Below are positions 11,393-18,887 of a stretch of DNA of 64,000 nt, one piece after another. Position numbers and translations under genes: made by a program. The notes under the pieces are model-generated. The model saw only the letters and a list, made by a program, of their open reading frames with translations, did not search any database and had not been told where the DNA came from. The stretch comes from Klebsiella pneumoniae (GTDB lineage Bacteria; Pseudomonadota; Gammaproteobacteria; Pseudomonadales; UBA5518), in NCBI GenBank assembly GCA_945862145.1, contig CAMAXE010000003.1, positions 62,001 to 126,000 of the forward strand, in the 5' to 3' direction. The first letter of the stretch is position 1. Each line of letters begins with the position of its first letter.

Positions 11393-11469
11393 GGAGCGGT
11401 AGTTCAGTCGGTTAGAATACCGGCCTGTCACGCCGGGGGTCGCGGGTTCGAGTCCCGTCCGCTCCGCCA
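11393..11469 (+). tRNA. tRNA-Asp (GUC), integration target
   Basis: A 77-nt cloverleaf with acceptor GGAGCGG/CCGCTCC, anticodon stem CCGGC/GCCGG, loop CTGTCAC (anticodon GTC), T-arm GCGGGTTCGAGTCCCGT, discriminator G and encoded CCA. Its last 14 bases are duplicated at 18702-18715, marking it as the attachment site of the downstream element. The gene remains intact at the left junction. Confidence 0.97.
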
Positions 11470-11516
11470 TCATGTGCATCTAACCCGCTGAAAATGCGGG
11501 TTTTTTGTTTTTAGGG
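11456..11516 (+). repeat. Left attachment repeat (attL)
   Basis: It matches 18702-18762 at a constant offset of 7246 bp. The first 17 bp (CGTCCGCTCCGCCATCA) are identical; single differences occur at 11473, 11479-11480 and 11511. It includes the tRNA-Asp 3' end and the whole terminator. Confidence 0.9.
11484..11508 (+). terminator. Rho-independent terminator of the tRNA operon (left copy)
   Basis: CCCGC (11484-11488), loop TGAAAAT, GCGGG (11496-11500), then a run of six T. An identical copy occurs at 18730-18754 within the right attachment repeat. Confidence 0.85.
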
Positions 11517-11523
11517 AATCACT

Positions 11524-11545
11524 CAACCCACCATCTGACCCACCA
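11524..11545 (+). promoter_or_regulatory. Putative integrase arm-type sites, left end
   Basis: CAACCCACCA (11524-11533) and TGACCCACCA (11536-11545) have start points 12 bp apart. The same decamer and the same 12-bp spacing occur four times next to the integrase gene at the other end of the element. Confidence 0.65.
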
Positions 11546-11560
11546 AATCAGAATACTTAG

Positions 11561-11648
11561 GCGTCTCGGTATGGCGGTGATGGACAGCCAATTGCCACCC
11601 CCCGTTCAGCGTGACGGTATATGCGTGAACGTCGCCGGCGGCCTCAAA
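11561..11648 (+). repeat. 88-bp direct repeat, copy A
   Basis: Nearly identical to 12357-12443, both beginning GCGTCTCGG and ending CTCAAAC, with a 35-bp core of perfect identity. The two copies enclose two broken ParB-like gene fragments. It may be a mobile-element end or a duplicated regulatory segment; its family is not recognised. Confidence 0.75.
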
Positions 11649-12043
11649 CTCAGCCTCAGGAACAGCAGCCACGCGAGCTTTTCGATGTCGGAGTTGCCCG
11701 CATCCCTGCGCTTCTTGGCTTCGTCATAGGCGTCATTCAGTGGTCTTGCGCCGTTCAGCACAGACTCGACTAGGTCGGGGGCGCTGGAGATCACGGCGCG
11801 GGCTTGGCGGATATAACCGCCACTGACCTCGTTAATCTTTAACGAGGTTGTTTTCTTTCCCTGCTCCGAATCAGGAAACATCATCGCCACGGCCATCGCG
11901 CGCTGGCCCTTGGTCATGTGCCTGCGGTTCTGATTGCAGGACAGGATGTATTGCCCAACGTCGAGCAGATCCCGTGCGTTGTCACCGTTACCGCGAGCGA
12001 CATGGAGCTTTTGCTGCTTGCGGTAGAGCGCAACAGTAGCCAC
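11606..12043 (-). pseudogene. ParB-like regulator fragment (C-terminal part)
   Basis: A 145-codon leftward frame. The core GQYILSCNQNRRHMTKGQRAMAVAM is typical of the part following the ParB nuclease domain in ParB/Spo0J-like and phage or plasmid regulators, and is followed by helices ending PLNDAYDEAKKRR. The N-terminal ParB fold is absent, and the last residues (LRPPATFTHIPSR) are simply translation of direct repeat copy A, so the gene is probably broken at both ends. It overlaps a similar fragment on the opposite strand. Confidence 0.55.
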
Positions 12044-12514
12044 GGGCAGCAGCTTACCCAGGACGAGAAGCGGCGGTATGCGGTTCGATGGTTCGACGTT
12101 TTAGACCCTGACAAGATCTGCGCGGCTTTATCAATTTCGCGGCGGACGTTCAGCGCTTGGACGCAGGACAAGCAGAAGCAGCGCGAAGAAGAAATCCGCG
12201 ACCGCATTCTCTCTATGCACCTGCGGTGTCACACCCAGCAGCAGATTGCGGATGCGGTGGGGGTCTCGCAACCGGTCGTGGCGCGCCAGATTGTAGAATT
12301 TATTCAAAACGGCAAATTTTCCGATTCGAATATTTTCTTCGATTTTGAGGGTGACGGCGTCTCGGCATGGTGGCGGTGGACAGCCAATTGCCCCCCCGTT
12401 CAGCGTGACGGTATATGCGTGAACGTCGCCGGCCGGCTCAAACCCGCGCTCAGTCGGTGGATAGGACCCGCTGTCCGGCGTGTCCTACAGACACCCTGGC
12501 ACCCGGCGCGGTAG
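11918..12514 (+). pseudogene. ParB-like regulator fragment, rightward
   Basis: The convincing part runs from about 11970 to 12350. LLLLAVERNSSHGQQLTQDE matches the ParB-like RN..HG..L...E motif, followed by two helix-turn-helix stretches (ALSISRRTFSAWTQD and QIADAVGVSQPVVARQIVEF). The N-terminal nuclease-like domain is missing and the final 50 residues are translation of repeat copy B, so the frame is a remnant or a chimera. It is head-to-head with, and overlaps, the leftward ParB-like fragment; both cannot be intact genes. Confidence 0.5.
12357..12443 (+). repeat. 88-bp direct repeat, copy B
   Basis: Second copy of the repeat at 11561-11648, same orientation, with a few substitutions and one-base gaps in the C-run. 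Confidence 0.75.
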
Positions 12515-12536
12515 CGTCTAGGTCGAGGTGTTCACC

Positions 12537-12875
12537 ATGAAACTGGAAGACGTGTTGCTACTGGTGCGGGATGCGCGCGCGGCCATCGAGACCGGACGCG
12601 TCGAGGATGCGGCTTGGTTGCTGGAGGCCATCGAGGAGGACCTCGCGGCCGTCGAGGATGCAGGCGTTACTACTGAACGCCCGTTCAAAAACTCCAGATT
12701 TAAAAAAATCGAGGACCAAGGCGGTACATTGGGGAACGGCTCAGAGTTTGGACCCCCCCCCCGGCCGGGTGAGAAAAAGGCCACCAGCCGCTCGCCAGCC
12801 GGTGACCCGCAGCCCGAGGGCCACTTGCCGGATGACCCGCCGACCACGGGTGCCGCGCGAGCAGCGATTTTTTAG
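12537..12875 (+). CDS. Hypothetical small element protein
   Basis: A 112-residue frame with ATG 12537 behind the Shine-Dalgarno-like CGAGGTG (12523-12529). The first 45 residues form a plausible acidic helical region (EDVLLLVRDARAAIETGRVEDAAW). The remainder is low complexity, rich in Pro, Gly and charged residues, and contains a run of ten C at 12753-12762 coding PPP. No family is recognised. It is the only apparently intact rightward gene in the element and converges on the leftward block, overlapping the next gene end by 4 bp. Confidence 0.4.
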   Translation: MKLEDVLLLVRDARAAIETGRVEDAAWLLEAIEEDLAAVEDAGVTTERPFKNSRFKKIEDQGGTLGNGSEFGPPPRPGEKKATSRSPAGDPQPEGHLPDDPPTTGAARAAIF

Positions 12876-13381
12876 TGCAGAGCCCACTCCTGTAGCCACT
12901 GCGGAGGCTCTCGCTCCGGATCGCCGAAGGCGCCTTCGAGCAGGTCGCGCCGGAGCTCATGCTCCAACGCCAGCGCGTGGCGGACGGCCTGTTCAGCCGC
13001 GCGCCAGCGCGTGCCAATCTCGGCAGTGCGCGGATCCGCATCGACGGCTGCGCGGCGCGCTTTTTCACGCTCAATTTCGAGGCTTTCGGCGAGCCTGCGT
13101 TCCATCGCGCGCAAGGCCTCCAACCGCTGGCGCAGCGCCAGCTCACGCCCCTGCACCTCTAGCAGCGCAATGTGAGACGTTGCCGGCAGCGGCCTCCCCT
13201 CGATCAACATGGAGGCCTGCTCTTGGACGGCAAGCGGCGGTTGTGCGCGTGGCCCCCGCGCCAACTCGGCCAACAGCAGAACGTGCTCGGCGCTGCCGAC
13301 CTCGAGCTCCTCGCGAATCTTGGCTAGCAAATTCGCGGCGGCTGCAAACGCGGCGGACATATCTTCAACGTGGAGTCTCAT
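12872..13381 (-). CDS. Hypothetical helical/coiled-coil element protein
   Basis: A 169-residue protein (ATG 13381; an in-frame GTG at 13390 is possible). It is strongly helical and charged, with a likely coiled coil around ELALRQRLEALRAMERRLAESLEIEREK, and ends in acidic EREPPQWLQEW. No family is recognised. It follows the 83-residue gene at 13392 closely in the leftward block, so it is probably the last gene of that transcript. Confidence 0.55.
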   Translation of the reverse strand: MRLHVEDMSAAFAAAANLLAKIREELEVGSAEHVLLLAELARGPRAQPPLAVQEQASMLIEGRPLPATSHIALLEVQGRELALRQRLEALRAMERRLAESLEIEREKARRAAVDADPRTAEIGTRWRAAEQAVRHALALEHELRRDLLEGAFGDPEREPPQWLQEWALH

Positions 13382-13391
13382 GCTTGTCACC

Positions 13392-13643
13392 TCAGAATAT
13401 CCAGCGGCGCGGCTGGTGGTTCGTGATCATCGGCCGGCCAGACCAGAGCGCCATCGCACGGCCACACAGCAGCTCGCGCGGCTGGATGCCGTTCGCTAAC
13501 AGGAAAGAATCGAATCTGGCCATTGCCGGCTTGATCGCCTCGATGGCTGCATCGAGCCTCGCCTCGGCAGCGGCGCGCTTTGCGTCGTGGATTCGGCGCG
13601 GCTTCGGCCTCGGGGTGGTGGTGGTGGGTTTGCTCATCTTCAT
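13392..13643 (-). CDS. Hypothetical basic element protein
   Basis: An 83-residue protein beginning MKMSKPTTTTPRPKPRRIHDAKRAAAEARLDAAIEAIKPAMARFDSF: a basic, proline-rich N terminus and a helical middle. No family is recognised. A possible Shine-Dalgarno AGGAGA lies just upstream on the minus strand, and the downstream gene begins within about ten bases of its stop, so the two are likely co-translated. Confidence 0.5.
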   Translation of the reverse strand: MKMSKPTTTTPRPKPRRIHDAKRAAAEARLDAAIEAIKPAMARFDSFLLANGIQPRELLCGRAMALWSGRPMITNHQPRRWIF

Positions 13644-13705
13644 CTCCTAGGCCAATGTGGCCGGTTGGTGCCTTGCGGCGCTAGTGAATTGGTGGACGGG
13701 TGTTC

Positions 13706-14077
13706 TCATCGCTGCTCGGCCAGCCACGGCCACCGTGCAGCGCCTGTGCGCCGATCTGGATCCAGCAGCATGGGAACGTAGGCGGTGCATCGACGTGGCA
13801 CGTCATCGATCACGACGAAGCCTGTGTGCTGACACTTGCCTTTGCGTAGACGCTGACACTCGAAGCAGTGCCGGCGTTCATCGAGCAGCAGTTCGGATCG
13901 TGCTCTGGCGGGTTGTGTGTCCGACTGTGTCCGACTGTGTCCCGACTGCTTTTCTTCGGCTTGGGACACACAGGAATCGGGGGTGCTCTGAGCACCCCGA
14001 TTCACTGTGTCCCGATCACTTTCTCTATAGGGGACACGGTCACGCGGGACACACTCAATTACCGCGCCTGAGATCAT
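13706..14077 (-). CDS. Cysteine-rich element protein
   Basis: A 123-residue frame if ATG 14077 is used, which overlaps the ATPase stop by 4 bp (ATGA); an earlier start at 14101 would give a 28-bp overlap. The C-terminal part has HCFECQRLRKGKCQHTG and RRCTAYVP, a four-Cys pattern that could bind zinc and resembles Cys-rich tails found next to primase/ATPase genes in plasmids and integrative elements. The first half is low complexity. Function unknown; its position suggests a replication accessory. Confidence 0.55.
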   Translation of the reverse strand: MISGAVIECVPRDRVPYRESDRDTVNRGAQSTPDSCVSQAEEKQSGHSRTQSDTQPARARSELLLDERRHCFECQRLRKGKCQHTGFVVIDDVPRRCTAYVPMLLDPDRRTGAARWPWLAEQR

Positions 14078-15216
14078 GCTGAAAGCCTCTGCGTGGCCCA
14101 CCGTGTCCCGCTTGCGGCGAAGTGCAGGATTGCCCTCCGATCCGTCACTCGTGTGGTAACAGCGCCGGCCTCGACCAGCGCCTCGATGGCGGAATCGACG
14201 GCGTTGGCCTTGCGCTTAACAGCCGCTCGGATTGCGCGCTTGGTGATGCCGGCCGGATCGCGCTTGATGACCTCCAGCACCTCGGATTCCACTGCGCTGG
14301 CCATGCGTACGGCGGCTTCGGAATTGCGAGCCTCGACGTCTCGCTGGCGCTGCTCCTGCTCGATCTGGCGATCAGTCCTAGACATCCCTGCCAGCCAGCA
14401 CCAGAGCACACGCTCCTCGCTCTCCAGTCCGTACTCGTCCTCCACTGTGAGCGTGGCGATATGCGACTCGATCTTGATGCTGTCCACGGCCGCCACGAAT
14501 CGATGCTTCGGTTTGGCGATCTCAAGAAAGCGGGTGCCAGGGTCATCGTCGGCCTCGGTTAAGTACACCACCTGCGCGACATCGCCTTCAGCAGCAGACG
14601 CGCCACGCGCGGTCATGCCGTCGGCGGTGCCGTGCTTGTGCTGCTTGCTGGTGTGCATCACCAGCGTGGTGGGGAGGTCGTCAAAGCGTTGCTTAACCGC
14701 AGCCACCAGACGCGAGATAGCGGTGTTGGAGTTTTCGTCCTCGACGTCGAACGTGGCGGCGGTTGTGTCGAAAATCACCCACGGCTTGACGGCCACCGTG
14801 CGGCCGTTGCGACTGTCCTGCCGGGTGAGCGGTGCGTAGTCGGGTGCGACCTCTACCACCTGTGCCGGCGTCATCCGCAGCGCCTCAACCACATGTACCC
14901 AATGAAAGACGATCTCAAGCGGGATGTCCTGCGCCTGCGCCAGCGCGGCCAATATCTTCTCGACTTGCTCGGGGTGCTCGGAGACATAGACGACGTGGCG
15001 GTGTGCCTTGATCCGCAGGACGTCGTCACACCGGATTACCCCCGCGACGATAAGCGCCAGCGTGACCAGCGCCGAGGTTTTACCCCTGCCGGGGTAGGAC
15101 GCCACGATAGACACCTTGTCAGTCAACACGCCTTCGATCAAAAACGTGTCGGCTCGCGGCTTCTCTGGTGGCGGCCGGAATGCGGCTAGAGCGTGAACAA
15201 GAATTTCGGCGCTCAT
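14074..15216 (-). CDS. RepA-like RecA-fold ATPase
   Basis: A 380-residue protein of the AAA_25/RSF1010 RepA-like group of hexameric helicase ATPases. Walker A is YPGRGKTSA (residues 41-49), followed by VVYVSEHPEQ, a Walker B-like PWVIFDTTA with a downstream acidic DVEDENSNTAISR, and VMHTSKQHKHG as sensor region. The C terminus contains a winged-helix-like region (IKRDPAGITKRAIRAAVKRKANAVDSAIEALVEAGAV). It probably acts in replication or DNA processing of the element. It overlaps the TOPRIM gene upstream and the Cys-rich gene downstream by 4 bp each, so the three products are likely made in fixed ratio. Confidence 0.8.
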   Translation of the reverse strand: MSAEILVHALAAFRPPPEKPRADTFLIEGVLTDKVSIVASYPGRGKTSALVTLALIVAGVIRCDDVLRIKAHRHVVYVSEHPEQVEKILAALAQAQDIPLEIVFHWVHVVEALRMTPAQVVEVAPDYAPLTRQDSRNGRTVAVKPWVIFDTTAATFDVEDENSNTAISRLVAAVKQRFDDLPTTLVMHTSKQHKHGTADGMTARGASAAEGDVAQVVYLTEADDDPGTRFLEIAKPKHRFVAAVDSIKIESHIATLTVEDEYGLESEERVLWCWLAGMSRTDRQIEQEQRQRDVEARNSEAAVRMASAVESEVLEVIKRDPAGITKRAIRAAVKRKANAVDSAIEALVEAGAVTTRVTDRRAILHFAASGTRWATQRLSA

Positions 15217-16106
15217 CGCACGCCCTCAAACATGCTTGCCATCCGCTCGATGTGCTCGCGTTCCGACCGCTCCGCGACTCTTGCAACGTGCAGTGCGCCG
15301 ACAGGTAGGTGTTCCTCGATGTTCTCCACCAATAACTGGCGCAGGATGTGCGCGGGCATTGCCTCGGCTTCGACTGAGGCGCGGACGTGCGACGCGCGCC
15401 GGTCTTTCGGCTTGCGCGGCCTGGTGGGCAGGTCGTACTCCTCAATCTGCTCCTCGGTGATGGCTATGCGGCCGAATGCTAGGCTGACGTTCGGGTGCAG
15501 ATGGGTCCGCAGCTCGCGCTCGATGGAAACATCGATCAGTACGCCGGCCGGATCGTGGTCACCTATGTAGAGGATCAGCGCAGACCGCTCACCATCGTCG
15601 GTGTGGTAGTTGATGTTCTCAGCAGCCTGATAGGCAAGTGAGATGCTGGAAAACCCCCCGGCAGGGTAGAGGCTCACGGCGAGCGCGCGACAGTCGTCCT
15701 CAATGACGCCAGCGATACTTCGGGACTCACACCAGACCTCGACGTAGGTGTCGGACTGCGACCACAAATCGGCCCTGTACAGGCTTGCGACGCTTCGCAG
15801 AAAGTGCGATCCACTGGTGTAGGTGTGCGTGTGATAGCCCCGCCGGGTCGCGTCCGTGATCCATGAATACTTCAAGATTCCGGCTCGTCTCATCTCGGTG
15901 ATTCGATGCTGCACAGCCCGATATCCCTGATCGCTCTTGTCGACTGGTTCGGCTAGGCGCGGGTTGGTCATGCGATAGAACACATGCCGAATTGACTGCG
16001 GGTGATCTGCCGCGAGCACGTCGAAAATCTGGCCATCCAACTGCTCGACTTGGTGGCGAGTGCGTCGCCGTCGTTTATCGTGCGCGGTCGATAAAAAAAT
16101 GCTCAT
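15213..16106 (-). CDS. Spo11/Topo VI-A-like TOPRIM protein
   Basis: A 297-residue protein. The N-terminal region has SIRHVFYRMTNP (Tyr44) and a winged-helix-like segment resembling the strand-breaking part of Topo VI-A relatives. A TOPRIM domain follows, with Glu127 in VEVWCESRSIAG and Asp183/Asp185 in LYIGDHDPAG. No ATPase subunit of the Topo VI-B kind is present. Related single-subunit proteins occur in phages, but their role is poorly defined. ATG 16106 is supported by GGAGGT just upstream; the longer start at 16124 would contain that Shine-Dalgarno. It sits between a zinc-ribbon gene and the RepA-like ATPase, with ATGA overlaps on both sides. Confidence 0.75.
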   Translation of the reverse strand: MSIFLSTAHDKRRRRTRHQVEQLDGQIFDVLAADHPQSIRHVFYRMTNPRLAEPVDKSDQGYRAVQHRITEMRRAGILKYSWITDATRRGYHTHTYTSGSHFLRSVASLYRADLWSQSDTYVEVWCESRSIAGVIEDDCRALAVSLYPAGGFSSISLAYQAAENINYHTDDGERSALILYIGDHDPAGVLIDVSIERELRTHLHPNVSLAFGRIAITEEQIEEYDLPTRPRKPKDRRASHVRASVEAEAMPAHILRQLLVENIEEHLPVGALHVARVAERSEREHIERMASMFEGVR

Positions 16107-16285
16107 GCCGACCTCCGTACACATACGCGGCGCAGCCAGGCATCACGCTCGTCAGGGAGCAGGCAGGCCCACGCCACGGTCAGGGTGTCGCTGGCATGAG
16201 CGGCCATACACGAACGGCAGATAGACGTTGTGGGGATGGTTTGAGCACTGCCACAACGGCAGCATTTCTGAGTTTCGGATATCAT
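16103..16285 (-). CDS. Small zinc-ribbon protein
   Basis: A 60-residue protein starting MISETQKCCRCGSAQ, with two CxxC knuckles (CCRCG and SICRSC) 15-17 residues apart, as in a zinc ribbon. ATG 16285 follows GGGGAG on the minus strand. It overlaps the TOPRIM gene start by 4 bp. It may bind DNA or bridge the TOPRIM/ATPase proteins; no named family. Confidence 0.6.
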   Translation of the reverse strand: MISETQKCCRCGSAQTIPTTSICRSCMAAHASDTLTVAWACLLPDERDAWLRRVCVRRSA

Positions 16286-16351
16286 GGCGACTCTCCCCAG
16301 CACCCCGCGCCTCGCCGGCAAGCATCCGGCGCGGTGGTGCTTTTTCTTGGG

Positions 16352-16558
16352 TTAGCTGGTGGTGTCTGCGCTCGGTGCGATGCGCGCGAGCTCCTGCCGG
16401 AGCTTGATGTAGTTGCTGCCGTTGATCTGGTGAACGCGGATAACACCCCTCTCGCGCCAGCGGCTCAACGTCATGTAGCTGATTGGTTTGCCACTCCGAC
16501 CCATGACGTGCTGTTGCAGCATCGTCCACGGCACCCACGGCTCGTTTTCGGTGTTCAT
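16352..16558 (-). CDS. Excisionase/AlpA-like small DNA-binding protein
   Basis: A 68-residue protein (MNTENEPWVPW start). The middle, ISYMTLSRWRERGVIRVHQINGSNYIKLRQELARIA, resembles the winged helix of excisionases and AlpA-like regulators: a helix-turn-helix followed by a wing. In P4-type elements such proteins control excision directionality or integrase expression. ATG 16558 is chosen; the 16579 start adds a basic stretch without clear support. It lies between the replication block and the unknown HTH gene near the integrase. Confidence 0.55.
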   Translation of the reverse strand: MNTENEPWVPWTMLQQHVMGRSGKPISYMTLSRWRERGVIRVHQINGSNYIKLRQELARIAPSADTTS

Positions 16559-16696
16559 CTGTCGTCTCCTGTTCCACAACGCAGCTCATCTGCGTTCATG
16601 TGCGGACAGGTTGCTTCACAGTGTGCGGGGAAGTCGTCCGCAGAATTTTTCAGGTCCTGCGGACAAATGAATCAGCGCATCGGGTGATGCTGCGGT

Positions 16697-17230
16697 TTAC
16701 TTCTCGTAGTAGTAGCGTTCGACGGTGCCGCCTGATACGCCCAGAGACTCGCCGATCTCGTCAAACAACGGGCGCCCAATGCCCTTGCCTCTTTTTTTGG
16801 CTTTCTCAACTTCACGGCGAACGCGGCCGGCAAACTGAATCCTTCTCTGGCGAGCAGGAACCTGCTTGCCCTTCAGATGCGGCTTATCGAAAACGTCGTT
16901 CCAGTCTTTCGCTTTCCCGAACAGGACCTGGGTGTAAGCGGCAATAAATCCATCCCTCACCCATGCAGGCATCGGTTGCTCGCGTCCATCGATGTCTACA
17001 TGGCCGTGTGCAAACACATAAACCGCAGCCAAGATCGCTGACTTATCGCCAGCCGCGAACCTCCCTTGCAGTTCCGCTAGCGTCTGCGTCGGTGAATATC
17101 CGATGACACCATCATCCACCTGCAGGATTTCTGAGTTGGTAGCGGATGGCGCAGGATATTTGGGATCCTGCGGTCTCGCTTTCGATTTGGCGGAGCTCTT
17201 GGTTTTCACCGGCGTTTTGCGCGTTGCCAT
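16697..17230 (-). CDS. Hypothetical protein with C-terminal helix-turn-helix
   Basis: A 177-residue protein with a Lys/Arg/Ser-rich N terminus (MATRKTPVKTKSSAKSKARPQ), a central conserved-looking domain (LQGRFAAGDKSAILAAVYVFAHGHVD, MPAWVRDGFIAAYTQVLFG), a basic stretch KAKKRGKGIGRP and a terminal helix-turn-helix IGESLGVSGGTVERYY. Similar proteins occur near integrases in proteobacterial elements, but no function is established to my knowledge. It is 25 bp from the integrase stop, on the same strand. Confidence 0.65.
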   Translation of the reverse strand: MATRKTPVKTKSSAKSKARPQDPKYPAPSATNSEILQVDDGVIGYSPTQTLAELQGRFAAGDKSAILAAVYVFAHGHVDIDGREQPMPAWVRDGFIAAYTQVLFGKAKDWNDVFDKPHLKGKQVPARQRRIQFAGRVRREVEKAKKRGKGIGRPLFDEIGESLGVSGGTVERYYYEK

Positions 17231-17255
17231 ATGCAGCTCCTGCCGTGGTGGGTGT

Positions 17256-18491
17256 TCAAACAGCAGCTTTGATTGCAGTCGTGATCGACACGACGTTGGC
17301 AGCCGGCTTCGTCGTCACGAACGCGGCCCAGTCGGCCATTAAACCGCGTCGTTTTTCCAGAAGATCGCCGCGACGGTACGCCGCTTCGACCTTGTTCTCG
17401 ATGGCGTGCGCGAGAGCCAGCTCGCAGACGTCTCGCGCGTAATGCGTCTCCTCGGCGCACCAGTCTCTAAACGAGCTTCTGAAACCGTGGACGGTAACGC
17501 CTGGCCGAATCCGGCGGAGCTTCATCAGTAACGCCATGTCGGAGAGCGGCTTGCGCTTCCCACCCATACGCCGACCGGGAAACACCAGCTCGGGATCAAT
17601 GCCTGTCTGGCCTCGCAGGACTTCGATAGCGGCATCCGACAGCGGCACCGTATGGTCACGGCCGGCTTTCATGCGATCACCCGGCACGCGCCACAGACGC
17701 GCCTCCAGATCAACCTCACCCCACCTCGCGCCGATCACCTCGCCGGTCCGGCTCGCTGTCAGGATGGTGAACTGGAGAGCGCGGGAGACGGTGTCCACAC
17801 CGGCTGTCAGCTTGATCCAGAAGTCGCGCATCTCCTGCCACGGGATCGCCGGCTGATGCACCACCTTGGCGACCTTCGACCGAGGCGGCAGCAGCTTGTC
17901 GAGATGGCCACGCCATCGAGCAGGATTTGCTCCGTCTCGTTGATCTTGTGCGGCAGCGGCGTCCAGCACCAGCTCGATGCGGTTTCGGACGCGGGATGCC
18001 GTCTCGGTTTTCGTCTGCCAGATCGGCGTGATGATGCGGAGGATGTCGGCTGTGTTGATCTCGCTCACCAGCTTGTCGCCGATCACCGGGAATGCGTAGG
18101 TGGTTAACGTGTTCTTCCACTGCGCGTGATGCTTGGCGTTGCGCCAGCCGGCAGCGTGCGCCTCGATGTATTGCGCCGCAGCCGCCTTGAACGTCCAGAC
18201 GGCTTGCTCCTCGCGCTTGGCGGCCTGCCGTAGCGTGATCGGATCTTCGCCTTGTGCGATCAGCCTGCGAGCCTCTCCAGCTTTCTCCCCGGCTTCAGCC
18301 AGCGTCACCTCAGGGTAACTGCCGAGACCCATCTCCCTGCGCTTCTCGGAAAATGTGAATCGGAAGATCCATGCCGCCGTCCGGTTGGCTCCGATCTGGA
18401 TGTACAGGCCGGAATCTACCCGCAACATCGACGGCGCTTTGGCGGCGCGTATGAGCTTCTGTAAGAGCTTGTCGTTCTGGATTTGTTTCAT
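17256..18491 (-). CDS. int: P4-type tyrosine integrase
   Basis: A 411-residue site-specific recombinase. The N-terminal DUF4102 arm-binding domain (MLRVDSGLYIQIGANRTAAW, RREMGLGSYPEVTLAEAGEKA) is followed by the core-binding domain and the catalytic domain with Arg in TASRTGEV, HGFRSSFRDW (His-x-x-Arg), the second His in LALAH and the Tyr nucleophile in VEAAYRR. It is full length with no missing catalytic residue. It is transcribed away from attR into the element. The start codon touches the cluster of TGACCCACCA arm sites, so binding of Int there could repress its own gene. Confidence 0.95.
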   Translation of the reverse strand: MKQIQNDKLLQKLIRAAKAPSMLRVDSGLYIQIGANRTAAWIFRFTFSEKRREMGLGSYPEVTLAEAGEKAGEARRLIAQGEDPITLRQAAKREEQAVWTFKAAAAQYIEAHAAGWRNAKHHAQWKNTLTTYAFPVIGDKLVSEINTADILRIITPIWQTKTETASRVRNRIELVLDAAAAQDQRDGANPARWRGHLDKLLPPRSKVAKVVHQPAIPWQEMRDFWIKLTAGVDTVSRALQFTILTASRTGEVIGARWGEVDLEARLWRVPGDRMKAGRDHTVPLSDAAIEVLRGQTGIDPELVFPGRRMGGKRKPLSDMALLMKLRRIRPGVTVHGFRSSFRDWCAEETHYARDVCELALAHAIENKVEAAYRRGDLLEKRRGLMADWAAFVTTKPAANVVSITTAIKAAV

Positions 18492-18546
18492 TGACCCACC
18501 ACCTGACCCACCACTTCGGCAGGCTGACCCACCATCTGACCCACCA
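18492..18546 (+). promoter_or_regulatory. Putative integrase arm-type sites, right end
   Basis: Four exact copies of TGACCCACCA at 18492, 18504, 18525 and 18537 form two pairs, each with a 12-bp period and 33 bp between pairs. They abut the integrase start codon, and the same decamer pair recurs at the left end (11524-11545). Confidence 0.7.
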
Positions 18547-18701
18547 CCAAGTCATGGTAGCGCGTGTTATGGATTGCGGCAATGTGATAGGCGAAACAGG
18601 ACGACATGCCATATAAACCACTGTTTGCTAACGGTTTATGATGCTGATTTGGTGGGACTTTGTGAGCGATTGTAGCAGGCTGATATTCCGTCTTAGGCGG
18701 A
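18547..18701. promoter_or_regulatory. Integrase upstream region with a dyad
   Basis: No gene is seen in this stretch. ATAAACC (18613-18619) and GGTTTAT (18633-18639) form a 7-bp inverted repeat that could be an operator or a recombination-directionality site. The integrase promoter should lie in this interval or within the arm sites. Confidence 0.35.
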
Positions 18702-18762
18702 CGTCCGCTCCGCCATCACGTGCAAATAACCCGCTGAAAATGCGGGTTTTTTGTTTCTAGGG
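18702..18762 (+). repeat. Right attachment repeat (attR)
   Basis: It carries the last 14 bases of tRNA-Asp plus downstream sequence and a full copy of the terminator (CCCGC/GCGGG and T-run). It should be the original chromosomal 3' end displaced by integration. Confidence 0.9.
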
Positions 18763-18887
18763 GGTCGCTCGGTCCTGGCCATTCTCAAGCAGGCGGCGGC
18801 TGGGTTAGCTGTCCCGGCGCTCTCGCGTGAGCCTGCGGCGGAGTTACCCGCAACAGGCTGGGCCTGCGGGGGTGGGAGCCGTGCAGG
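18763..18887. other. Intergenic region after attR
   Basis: No gene or clear signal is seen in these 125 bp; they lie downstream of the PP2C phosphatase gene, which ends at 18888 on the minus strand. Confidence 0.6.

What the first reader, a model, noticed from the sequence alone, without database searches (positions are those of the whole stretch)
13706..16285. Overlapping zinc-ribbon / Spo11-like TOPRIM / RepA-like ATPase / Cys-rich block
Four genes with ATGA overlaps form one translational unit. A Topo VI-A/Spo11-like TOPRIM protein with Glu127 and Asp183/Asp185, plus a possible nucleophilic Tyr44, is paired with a RecA-fold ATPase but no Topo VI-B subunit. This could be a new replication-initiation or DNA-breaking machine for small integrative elements, or a defence against other elements.
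Basis: partly seen in the sequence, partly recalled or inferred. Interest (0 to 1): 0.65.

Follow-up and report, generated by a model that had tools for sequence, protein, structure and literature searches.

The report
Spo11-like enzyme in satellite replication module
A small DNA element inserted next to an aspartate tRNA gene carries a known but uncharacterised relative of the enzyme that starts meiotic recombination (Topo mini-A), welded to a helicase-like ATPase and followed by a cluster of origin-like DNA repeats; related elements keep the enzyme but exchange the initiator and its repeats, which points to a role in copying the element rather than in defence.

Summary
In detail: four genes on the minus strand joined by three ATGA overlaps, with Tyr44, Glu127, Asp183 and Asp185 at the stated positions. 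The TOPRIM protein belongs to a described family, Topo mini-A (stand-alone Topo VI-A/Spo11 relatives of mobile elements). All catalytic residues are invariant in 90 relatives, and the model's best solved match is Topo VI-A. It sits in a 7.3-kb element integrated at tRNA-Asp. What is new here: (1) in 39 relatives of its subfamily, Mini-A is followed, usually overlapping, by a replication gene in 34; (2) that partner is interchangeable (RepA_N/lambda-O-like winged helix, AAA_25 ATPase, primase-helicase, MobV relaxase) and swaps freely on the Mini-A tree, so the ATPase is not a dedicated substitute for Topo VI-B; (3) an iteron-like repeat array lies at the 3' end of the partner gene in 15 of 16 elements with a significant array (2 expected), including 8 GGACAC copies in the window; (4) many relatives are capsid-encoding satellites of the cf-PICI type, where Mini-A plus initiator occupies the slot held elsewhere by a primase-helicase. 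Best explanation: a replication module (initiator, origin and Mini-A). Defence is not supported. What Mini-A cuts, and why, is untested.

The parts
11456..11524 (.). attachment-site copy at the tRNA-Asp 3' end (69-nt direct repeat, 90% identical to 18702-18770)
   Evidence: the repeat finder family D1; tRNA-Asp 11393-11469 +
18702..18770 (.). second attachment-site copy, at the integrase end; the element is about 11456-18770 (spacing 7246 bp)
   Evidence: two congeners have the tRNA-Val/tRNA-Asp pair with the upstream host gene and no integrase in the fetched 3-kb loci
17256..18491 (-). tyrosine integrase (Arm-DNA-bind_3, Phage_int_M, Phage_integrase)
   Evidence: Pfam E 3e-30, 6e-19, 3e-13
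18492..18547 (.). direct repeats TGACCCACCA..., also at 11524-11546 beside the other att copy; probably integrase arm-type sites (inference)
   Evidence: the repeat finder D4
16697..17230 (-). 177-aa protein of unknown function with an HTH-like C-terminus; distant homologue beside Mini-A in L027 (22%)
16352..16579 (-). 75-aa HTH-like protein, possibly AlpA/excisionase-like
   Evidence: sequence reading; no significant Pfam, PHROG or NCBIfam hit; AlpA-like ORFs (by eye) stand directly upstream of Mini-A in several relatives
16103..16285 (-). 60-aa zinc-ribbon-like protein (CxxC...CxxC), ATGA overlap with Mini-A
   Evidence: sequence; not conserved in relatives, 0 of 38
15213..16106 (-). Topo mini-A protein, 297 aa: WHD-like N-terminus with R40 and Y44, TOPRIM with E127, D183, D185
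   Evidence: phrog_6247 DNA topoisomerase E 7.7e-47; A1/A2 invariant residues; AF2 pLDDT 94.6; 1d3y Topo VI-A Z 12.2
14074..15216 (-). AAA_25 (RepA-like, RecA-fold) ATPase, 380 aa, Walker A GRGKT, possible C-terminal winged helix; ATGA overlap with Mini-A
   Evidence: PF13481 E 2.5e-14; RPA_C weak, E 0.0096; phrog_906 DNA polymerase/primase E 3.6e-9 over its residues 517-837
13916..14108 (.). candidate origin: 8 copies of GTGTCC/GGACAC on both strands (TGTGTCC x6) within 190 bp at the 3' end of the ATPase gene
   Evidence: 0 of 200 shuffles reach it; max 6, mean 4.2
13961..14016 (.). hairpin flanked by inverted repeats of the array motif, GGGACACA...AATCGGGG-GTGCTCTGAGCAC-CCCGATT...TGTGTCCC
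   Evidence: single-strand DNA fold of 13905-14075 z = -5.8, 0 of 200 shuffles as stable
13706..14077 (-). 123-aa Cys-containing protein (CFEC...C...C C-terminus); its 5' half overlaps the repeat array
   Evidence: sequence; no family match
12872..13390 (-). 172-aa ORF of unknown function within the element (13392-13643 is an 83-aa ORF)

Best explanation
The block is the replication module of a 7.3-kb tRNA-Asp-integrated element that resembles phage satellites. After integrase-driven excision, the AAA_25 (RepA-like) ATPase is taken to act as helicase/initiator at the GTGTCC repeat array and hairpin at the 3' end of its own gene. Mini-A, translated in a coupled fashion just before it, is taken to act on the same DNA: as a dimer it would cut with Tyr44 and a Mg2+-bound E127/D183/D185 TOPRIM centre, most likely to relax or unlink the replicating circle. 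Shown here: family, residues, fold, element borders, repeat array, and conserved pairing of Mini-A with replication genes. Inferred: origin function, the ATPase's helicase activity, and any activity of Mini-A. The exact job of Mini-A (relaxation, decatenation, or cutting the origin) is open.
For: Of 39 assessable relatives in the window's Mini-A subfamily (48-65% identity), 34 have a replication or mobilisation gene as next gene(s); 27 of 36 downstream genes start within -11 to +4 nt of the Mini-A stop. Partner classes swap freely: 13 parsimony changes against 14.0 in shuffled labels. The commonest partner matches RepA_N initiators by profile (4pta E 1.9e-4), lambda-O-like and DnaD-like PHROGs, and RepA_N initiator folds (4pql, 4pt7, 5kbj, 4ro3). 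Repeat arrays: 15 of 16 significant arrays lie within -500/+400 nt of the partner stop, 2.0 expected. In the WH class the repeats are often inverted repeats around an A-tract, as known for RepA_N iterons including satellite PLE (PMC7145576). In capsid-bearing relatives the same slot holds either Mini-A plus initiator or PrimPol (7) or a primase-helicase or other replication protein (9). Mini-A is under purifying selection in the one clade tested (dN/dS 0.07-0.13).
Against: No relative of the window's own ATPase was found in 369 genomes of its class or in viral contigs (a weak test that finds only close relatives), so this particular pair is known from one element. The -500/+400 interval was chosen after seeing the first arrays. 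Only 16 of 35 elements have a significant array by this test. Distant Mini-A proteins of phages do not share the tight pairing, and no array lies at the Mini-A gene itself. No Topo VI-B exists, so ordinary ATP-driven strand passage by Mini-A is doubtful.
Confidence: 0.72

Rival explanations
1. Mini-A starts replication itself: it makes a Tyr-linked double-strand break or nick at or near the origin, Spo11-fashion, and the free 3' end or recombination primes copying; the partner only loads the replisome.
For: Complete Spo11/Topo VI-A active site without Topo VI-B; coupling to initiators of very different mechanism, including a MobV relaxase in L043; phage homologue next to a Sak4-like annealing protein, ligase and primase.
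Against: The repeat motifs differ between elements with related Mini-A and look like initiator sites; no conserved site at the Mini-A gene was seen. Sister satellites replicate with a primase-helicase and no Mini-A.
Confidence: 0.15
2. The ATPase is the energy-transducing subunit of Mini-A, replacing Topo VI-B, so that the pair is a two-subunit topoisomerase.
For: Adjacent, ATGA-coupled genes; both present in six elements counting the window.
Against: Most close relatives have a non-ATPase winged-helix protein or a primase instead, and the swaps are as frequent as in shuffled labels. AAA_25 ATPases also occur in a related satellite without Mini-A (L200).
Confidence: 0.08
3. Mini-A is a nuclease used against helper phage, competing elements or the host (defence or interference), like the Topo VI-A-like nucleases JetD and MksG of plasmid-defence systems.
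For: Structural resemblance to MksG 8b7f (Z 11.2) and JetD 7til (Z 9.3); satellites often interfere with phages.
Against: No convincing PADLOC match; no SMC/kleisin genes; partners are replication genes; the slot is shared with primase-helicases; lytic phages carry Mini-A among replication genes.
Confidence: 0.05

Closest known systems
Topo mini-A (Mini-A) family, type IIB topoisomerase-like proteins of mobile elements (Takahashi et al. 2020, cited in PMC8185306; PMC8084294; PMC7614492)
   Same: About 300 aa, Topo VI-A/Spo11-like WHD-TOPRIM with catalytic Tyr and acidic triad, no B subunit, encoded on mobile elements; plasmid LC711082 homologue is annotated Topo Mini-A
   Different: The family's function is stated as unknown; the consistent pairing with swappable initiators and repeat arrays in integrated satellite-like elements was not found in the texts that could be read
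Capsid-forming PICIs (cf-PICIs)
   Same: Many of the close relatives carry integrase, replication genes and some or all of capsid, prohead protease, portal, HNH and terminases; 10-12-kb examples L103-L106 show no tail genes in the ORF lists (definition in PMC10690885)
   Different: The window element has none of the capsid or packaging genes
PICMI minimalist satellites of Vibrio (PMC10803314)
   Same: Small integrative element with integrase and few genes, no capsid genes
   Different: Replication by a DUF3987/DUF5906 primase there, Mini-A plus AAA_25 ATPase here; fis site there, tRNA-Asp here; no AlpA Pfam match here
PLE satellite replicon (RepA_N initiator plus iterons, PMC7145576) and lambda O/ori (PMC7466680)
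   Same: Winged-helix initiator and inverted-repeat iterons; in lambda the iterons lie inside the initiator gene, as in the WH-class relatives here
   Different: No Mini-A is mentioned in the passages read; in the window the initiator is an AAA_25 ATPase and the repeats are not palindromic one by one
Topo VI / Spo11
   Same: Fold and active-site motifs; best solved match 1d3y (Z 12.2) and shared YDLPTxPxKxxD motif
   Different: No Topo VI-B; sequence identity about 20% in the TOPRIM domain; much smaller

Membership tests
Topo mini-A | Homologous to Topo VI-A catalytic subunit (TOPRIM fold) | tested here: met
   AF2 pLDDT 94.6; 1d3y Z 12.2, rmsd 2.5, 133 residues; 9o0g Z 11.6, rmsd 3.1, 140 residues; phrog_6247 E 7.7e-47
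Topo mini-A | WHD (5Y-CAP) with catalytic Tyr | tested here: inconclusive
   R40 and Y44 invariant in 90 sequences, aligned by profile with the REAYY Tyr of 1d3y but with negative score; the structure comparison tested only residues 111-268
Topo mini-A | TOPRIM acidic triad E/DxD | tested here: met
   E127, D183, D185 invariant
Topo mini-A | No Topo VI-B partner; carried by a mobile element | tested here: met
   No PF09239 in the genome; integrase, 69-nt att repeats, unoccupied tRNA-Asp site in congeners
Topo VI / Topo VIII | GHKL ATPase B subunit or domain | tested here: not met
   297-aa protein without such a domain; no PF09239 in the genome
cf-PICI (window element) | Own capsid, protease, portal, terminases, HNH | tested here: not met
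   None among the element's ORFs
cf-PICI (relatives L103-L106) | Integrase plus capsid, protease, portal, HNH, TerS, TerL | tested here: met
   PF05065, PF04586, PF04860, PF20441; all six homologous genes in L103-L106; integrase cluster c1. TerS assigned by cluster only, no Pfam hit. Helper dependence not testable here
PICMI | int, alpA, DUF3987/DUF5906 primase, fis site | tested here: not met
   Integrase present; no primase; no AlpA Pfam hit; site is tRNA-Asp
Wadjet JetD / MksG | TOPRIM nuclease with SMC-kleisin-kite partners | tested here: not met
   No PADLOC hit to JetD or MksG; neighbouring genes are Int, HTH and ATPase
RepA (AAA_25) replicative helicase | RecA-fold hexameric helicase activity | not testable with these tools
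   Pfam AAA_25 and Walker motifs only; no PDB sequence hit

The most novel reading that the evidence does not exclude
Mini-A is a Spo11-like enzyme that begins replication of phage satellites and other small elements by a tyrosine-linked break near an initiator-bound origin, as a conserved 'cutting' half of a module whose initiator/origin half is freely exchanged.
Probability: 0.14. Interest if true: 0.85.

Novelty: new variant of a known kind. Interest (0 to 1): 0.56.

Why it matters
Mini-A proteins are stand-alone relatives of Spo11 and Topo VI-A whose function the reviews call unknown. The constant pairing with an initiator, an adjacent repeat array and an exchangeable partner gives a concrete, testable role: part of the replication module of satellite-like elements. 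It names small natural systems (7-12 kb) in which a Topo VI-A-like enzyme without Topo VI-B can be studied, bearing on how such enzymes were available to become Spo11.

Tried and rejected
Single-protein viral scan for Mini-A found nothing; a profile scan did. Foldseek alone gave no meaningful match for Mini-A or in viral models; VIA-align resolved the TOPRIM domain. ATPase against PDB by sequence: no hit. Ancient four-gene block: rejected, zinc ribbon 0 of 38. ATPase as obligate Mini-A subunit: rejected on partner swapping. Mini-A binding the arrays: not favoured; arrays sit at the partner gene, none within 200 nt of 110 distant Mini-A genes. TGTCC as conserved AAA_25 iteron: only suggestive, window, L042 and L044 share it, L026 does not. 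Defence: no convincing PADLOC hit. Takahashi et al. 2020 itself is not held, so the family definition is taken from three reviews; whether that paper noted initiator neighbours could not be checked. Searches for Mini-A with satellites in papers found nothing relevant. A profile scan with the WH partner could not be run.

Full report
OBSERVATION. The four genes exist on the minus strand: zinc-ribbon 16285-16103, TOPRIM protein 16106-15213, ATPase 15216-14074 and Cys protein 14077-13706. They are joined by ATGA overlaps at 16106-16103, 15216-15213 and 14077-14074.

THE ELEMENT. The block lies inside a mobile element. A 69-nt direct repeat (90% identical) occurs at 11456-11524, overlapping the 3' end of tRNA-Asp (11393-11469), and at 18702-18770 next to a tyrosine integrase gene (17256-18491). 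Repeats TGACCCACCA at 11524 and 18492-18547 beside both att copies are probably integrase arm sites (inference). Two congeneric genomes have the tRNA-Val/tRNA-Asp pair with the same upstream host gene (78-84% identical protein) and no integrase match in the fetched 3-kb loci, consistent with an unoccupied site. The element is about 7.3 kb and has no recognisable capsid or packaging gene.

THE TOPRIM PROTEIN IS TOPO MINI-A. It matches phrog_6247, 'DNA topoisomerase', at 7.7e-47. Homologues lie in 71 phage and 41 plasmid records, among them an archaeal plasmid protein annotated Topo Mini-A. R40, Y44, E127, D183 and D185 are invariant in 14 and 90 homologues. The AlphaFold2 model has pLDDT 94.6. 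VIA-align puts Topo VI-A first (1d3y Z 12.2, rmsd 2.5, 133 residues; 9o0g Z 11.6), followed by MksG (Z 11.2) and JetD (Z 9.3). This tests only the TOPRIM domain (111-268); the WHD rests on motif and model. A profile of the 90 proteins finds a single PDB sequence, Topo VI-A, weakly (E 0.084), through DPxG and YDLPTxPxKxxD, and its sub-threshold second segment sets Y44 against the REAYY tyrosine. No Topo VI-B is encoded in the genome. Reviews describe Mini-A as mobile-element proteins of unknown function.

A CLOSE SUBFAMILY AND ITS PARTNERS. Profile scans of genomes and viral contigs gave 45 close loci (48-65% identity), then a drop to 39% and below. An integrase of one cluster is found in 30 of these and window loci. 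The gene(s) directly downstream, in 39 assessable loci: RepA_N/O-like winged-helix protein in 19 (L035 assigned by eye), YdaU-like primosomal protein in 3, AAA_25 ATPase in 5 (two of these with a DnaG-type primase between), primase-helicase (PrimPol-D5, DUF927, DUF3987, DUF3631) in 6, MobV relaxase in 1, none recognised in 5 (L022, L049, L051, L052, L109). Of 36 downstream genes, 27 begin within -11 to +4 nt of the Mini-A stop. On the Mini-A tree the partner class needs 13 changes, against a mean of 14.0 for shuffled labels: the partner is exchanged almost without regard to Mini-A ancestry.

REPEAT ARRAYS. In the window, GGACAC/GTGTCC occurs 8 times within 190 bp (13917-14108) at the 3' end of the ATPase gene; 200 shuffles reach at most 6. 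The stretch also folds into a strong hairpin framed by inverted copies (z -5.8). In 35 elements tested the same way, 16 have an array above all shuffles, and 15 of these lie within -500/+400 nt of the stop codon of the partner gene, 2.0 expected. The interval was drawn after a first look, so the figure is descriptive, though the effect is large. In the winged-helix class the repeats are often inverted repeats around an A-tract, such as CTTCAGAATCTGAA, TCATGAAAATCATGA and GTCACGAAAACCGTGAC. The winged-helix family matches RepA_N initiators by profile (4pta, 1.9e-4) and model (4pql Z 7.8, 4pt7 7.6, 5kbj 7.1, 4ro3 6.4, tied with other winged helices). RepA_N iterons are described as inverted repeats converging on a poly-A tract, including the PLE satellite whose RepA N-terminal domain is 4ro3 (PMC7145576); in lambdoid phages the iterons, imperfect inverted repeats, lie inside the O gene (PMC7466680). 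These parallels are independent of each other and agree. No significant array lies within 200 nt of the Mini-A gene in 110 distant loci.

SATELLITE CONTEXT. Many close relatives continue downstream with HK97-type capsid, prohead protease, portal, HNH and large terminase (Pfam); contigs of 10-12 kb such as L103-L106 show no tail genes. This is the gene content given for capsid-forming PICIs. A scan with the capsid protein found satellites with the same packaging module whose replication slot holds either Mini-A plus a winged-helix or PrimPol-like gene (L103-L106; L192, where the Mini-A frame appears broken; L193, L195; the last three with a Mini-A only 27-29% identical) or a primase-helicase, replicase or AAA_25 protein and no Mini-A (L188, L190, L191, L196, L198-L201, L203). 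Mini-A plus initiator is thus an alternative filling of the replication slot.

MECHANISM. Best supported: a replication module made of initiator, origin repeats and Mini-A. Shown: homology, residues, fold of the TOPRIM part, element borders, repeat array, pairing, slot equivalence, and purifying selection on Mini-A in one clade (dN/dS 0.07-0.13). Inferred: the array is the origin; the ATPase is the helicase/initiator; Mini-A cuts DNA by Tyr44 and the TOPRIM metal site to manage the topology of the replicating circle. Without a B subunit, ATP-driven strand passage is unlikely unless another protein supplies it, so cleavage-religation, assistance to host enzymes, or origin cutting remain possible. 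Defence is disfavoured: the only PADLOC match is marginal and irrelevant (E 0.0075), and lytic phages carry Mini-A among replication genes.

NOVELTY. The protein family is known; its function is not. The module architecture described here was not found in the papers that could be searched, but the founding paper is not held. Hence 'new variant of a known kind'.

Noticed in passing
window 11560-11659 and 12356-12453: About 100-bp direct repeats (88-90% identical), 796 bp apart, flank ORFs on opposite strands (11606-12043 -, 11918-12514 +) that look by eye like ParB/HTH fragments; possibly a duplication or a nested remnant inside the element.
   Followed up: no
L043:3450-4418: Mini-A followed with ATGA overlap by a MobV/Mob_Pre relaxase, a rolling-circle-type nicking enzyme, in place of an initiator.
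   Followed up: partly
L104 and L105: Both come from one IMG genome (2648501912): two different capsid-bearing Mini-A satellites in a single genome; L104 also carries a 396-aa ORF resembling an IS transposase (by eye) between the initiator and the capsid gene.
   Followed up: no
L102 about 4.6 kb upstream and L044 about 4.2 kb upstream of the Mini-A end: The array motif also occurs in clusters well upstream of Mini-A, so the same repeat may serve both the origin region and another site such as the integrase end.
   Followed up: no
L036: A contig labelled Oceanobacillus (Bacillota) holds a Mini-A 61% identical to the window's, otherwise almost only seen in Pseudomonadota; possible contamination or wide transfer.
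   Followed up: no
L192:4457-5428: Mini-A reading frame appears broken although capsid and packaging genes are kept.
   Followed up: no
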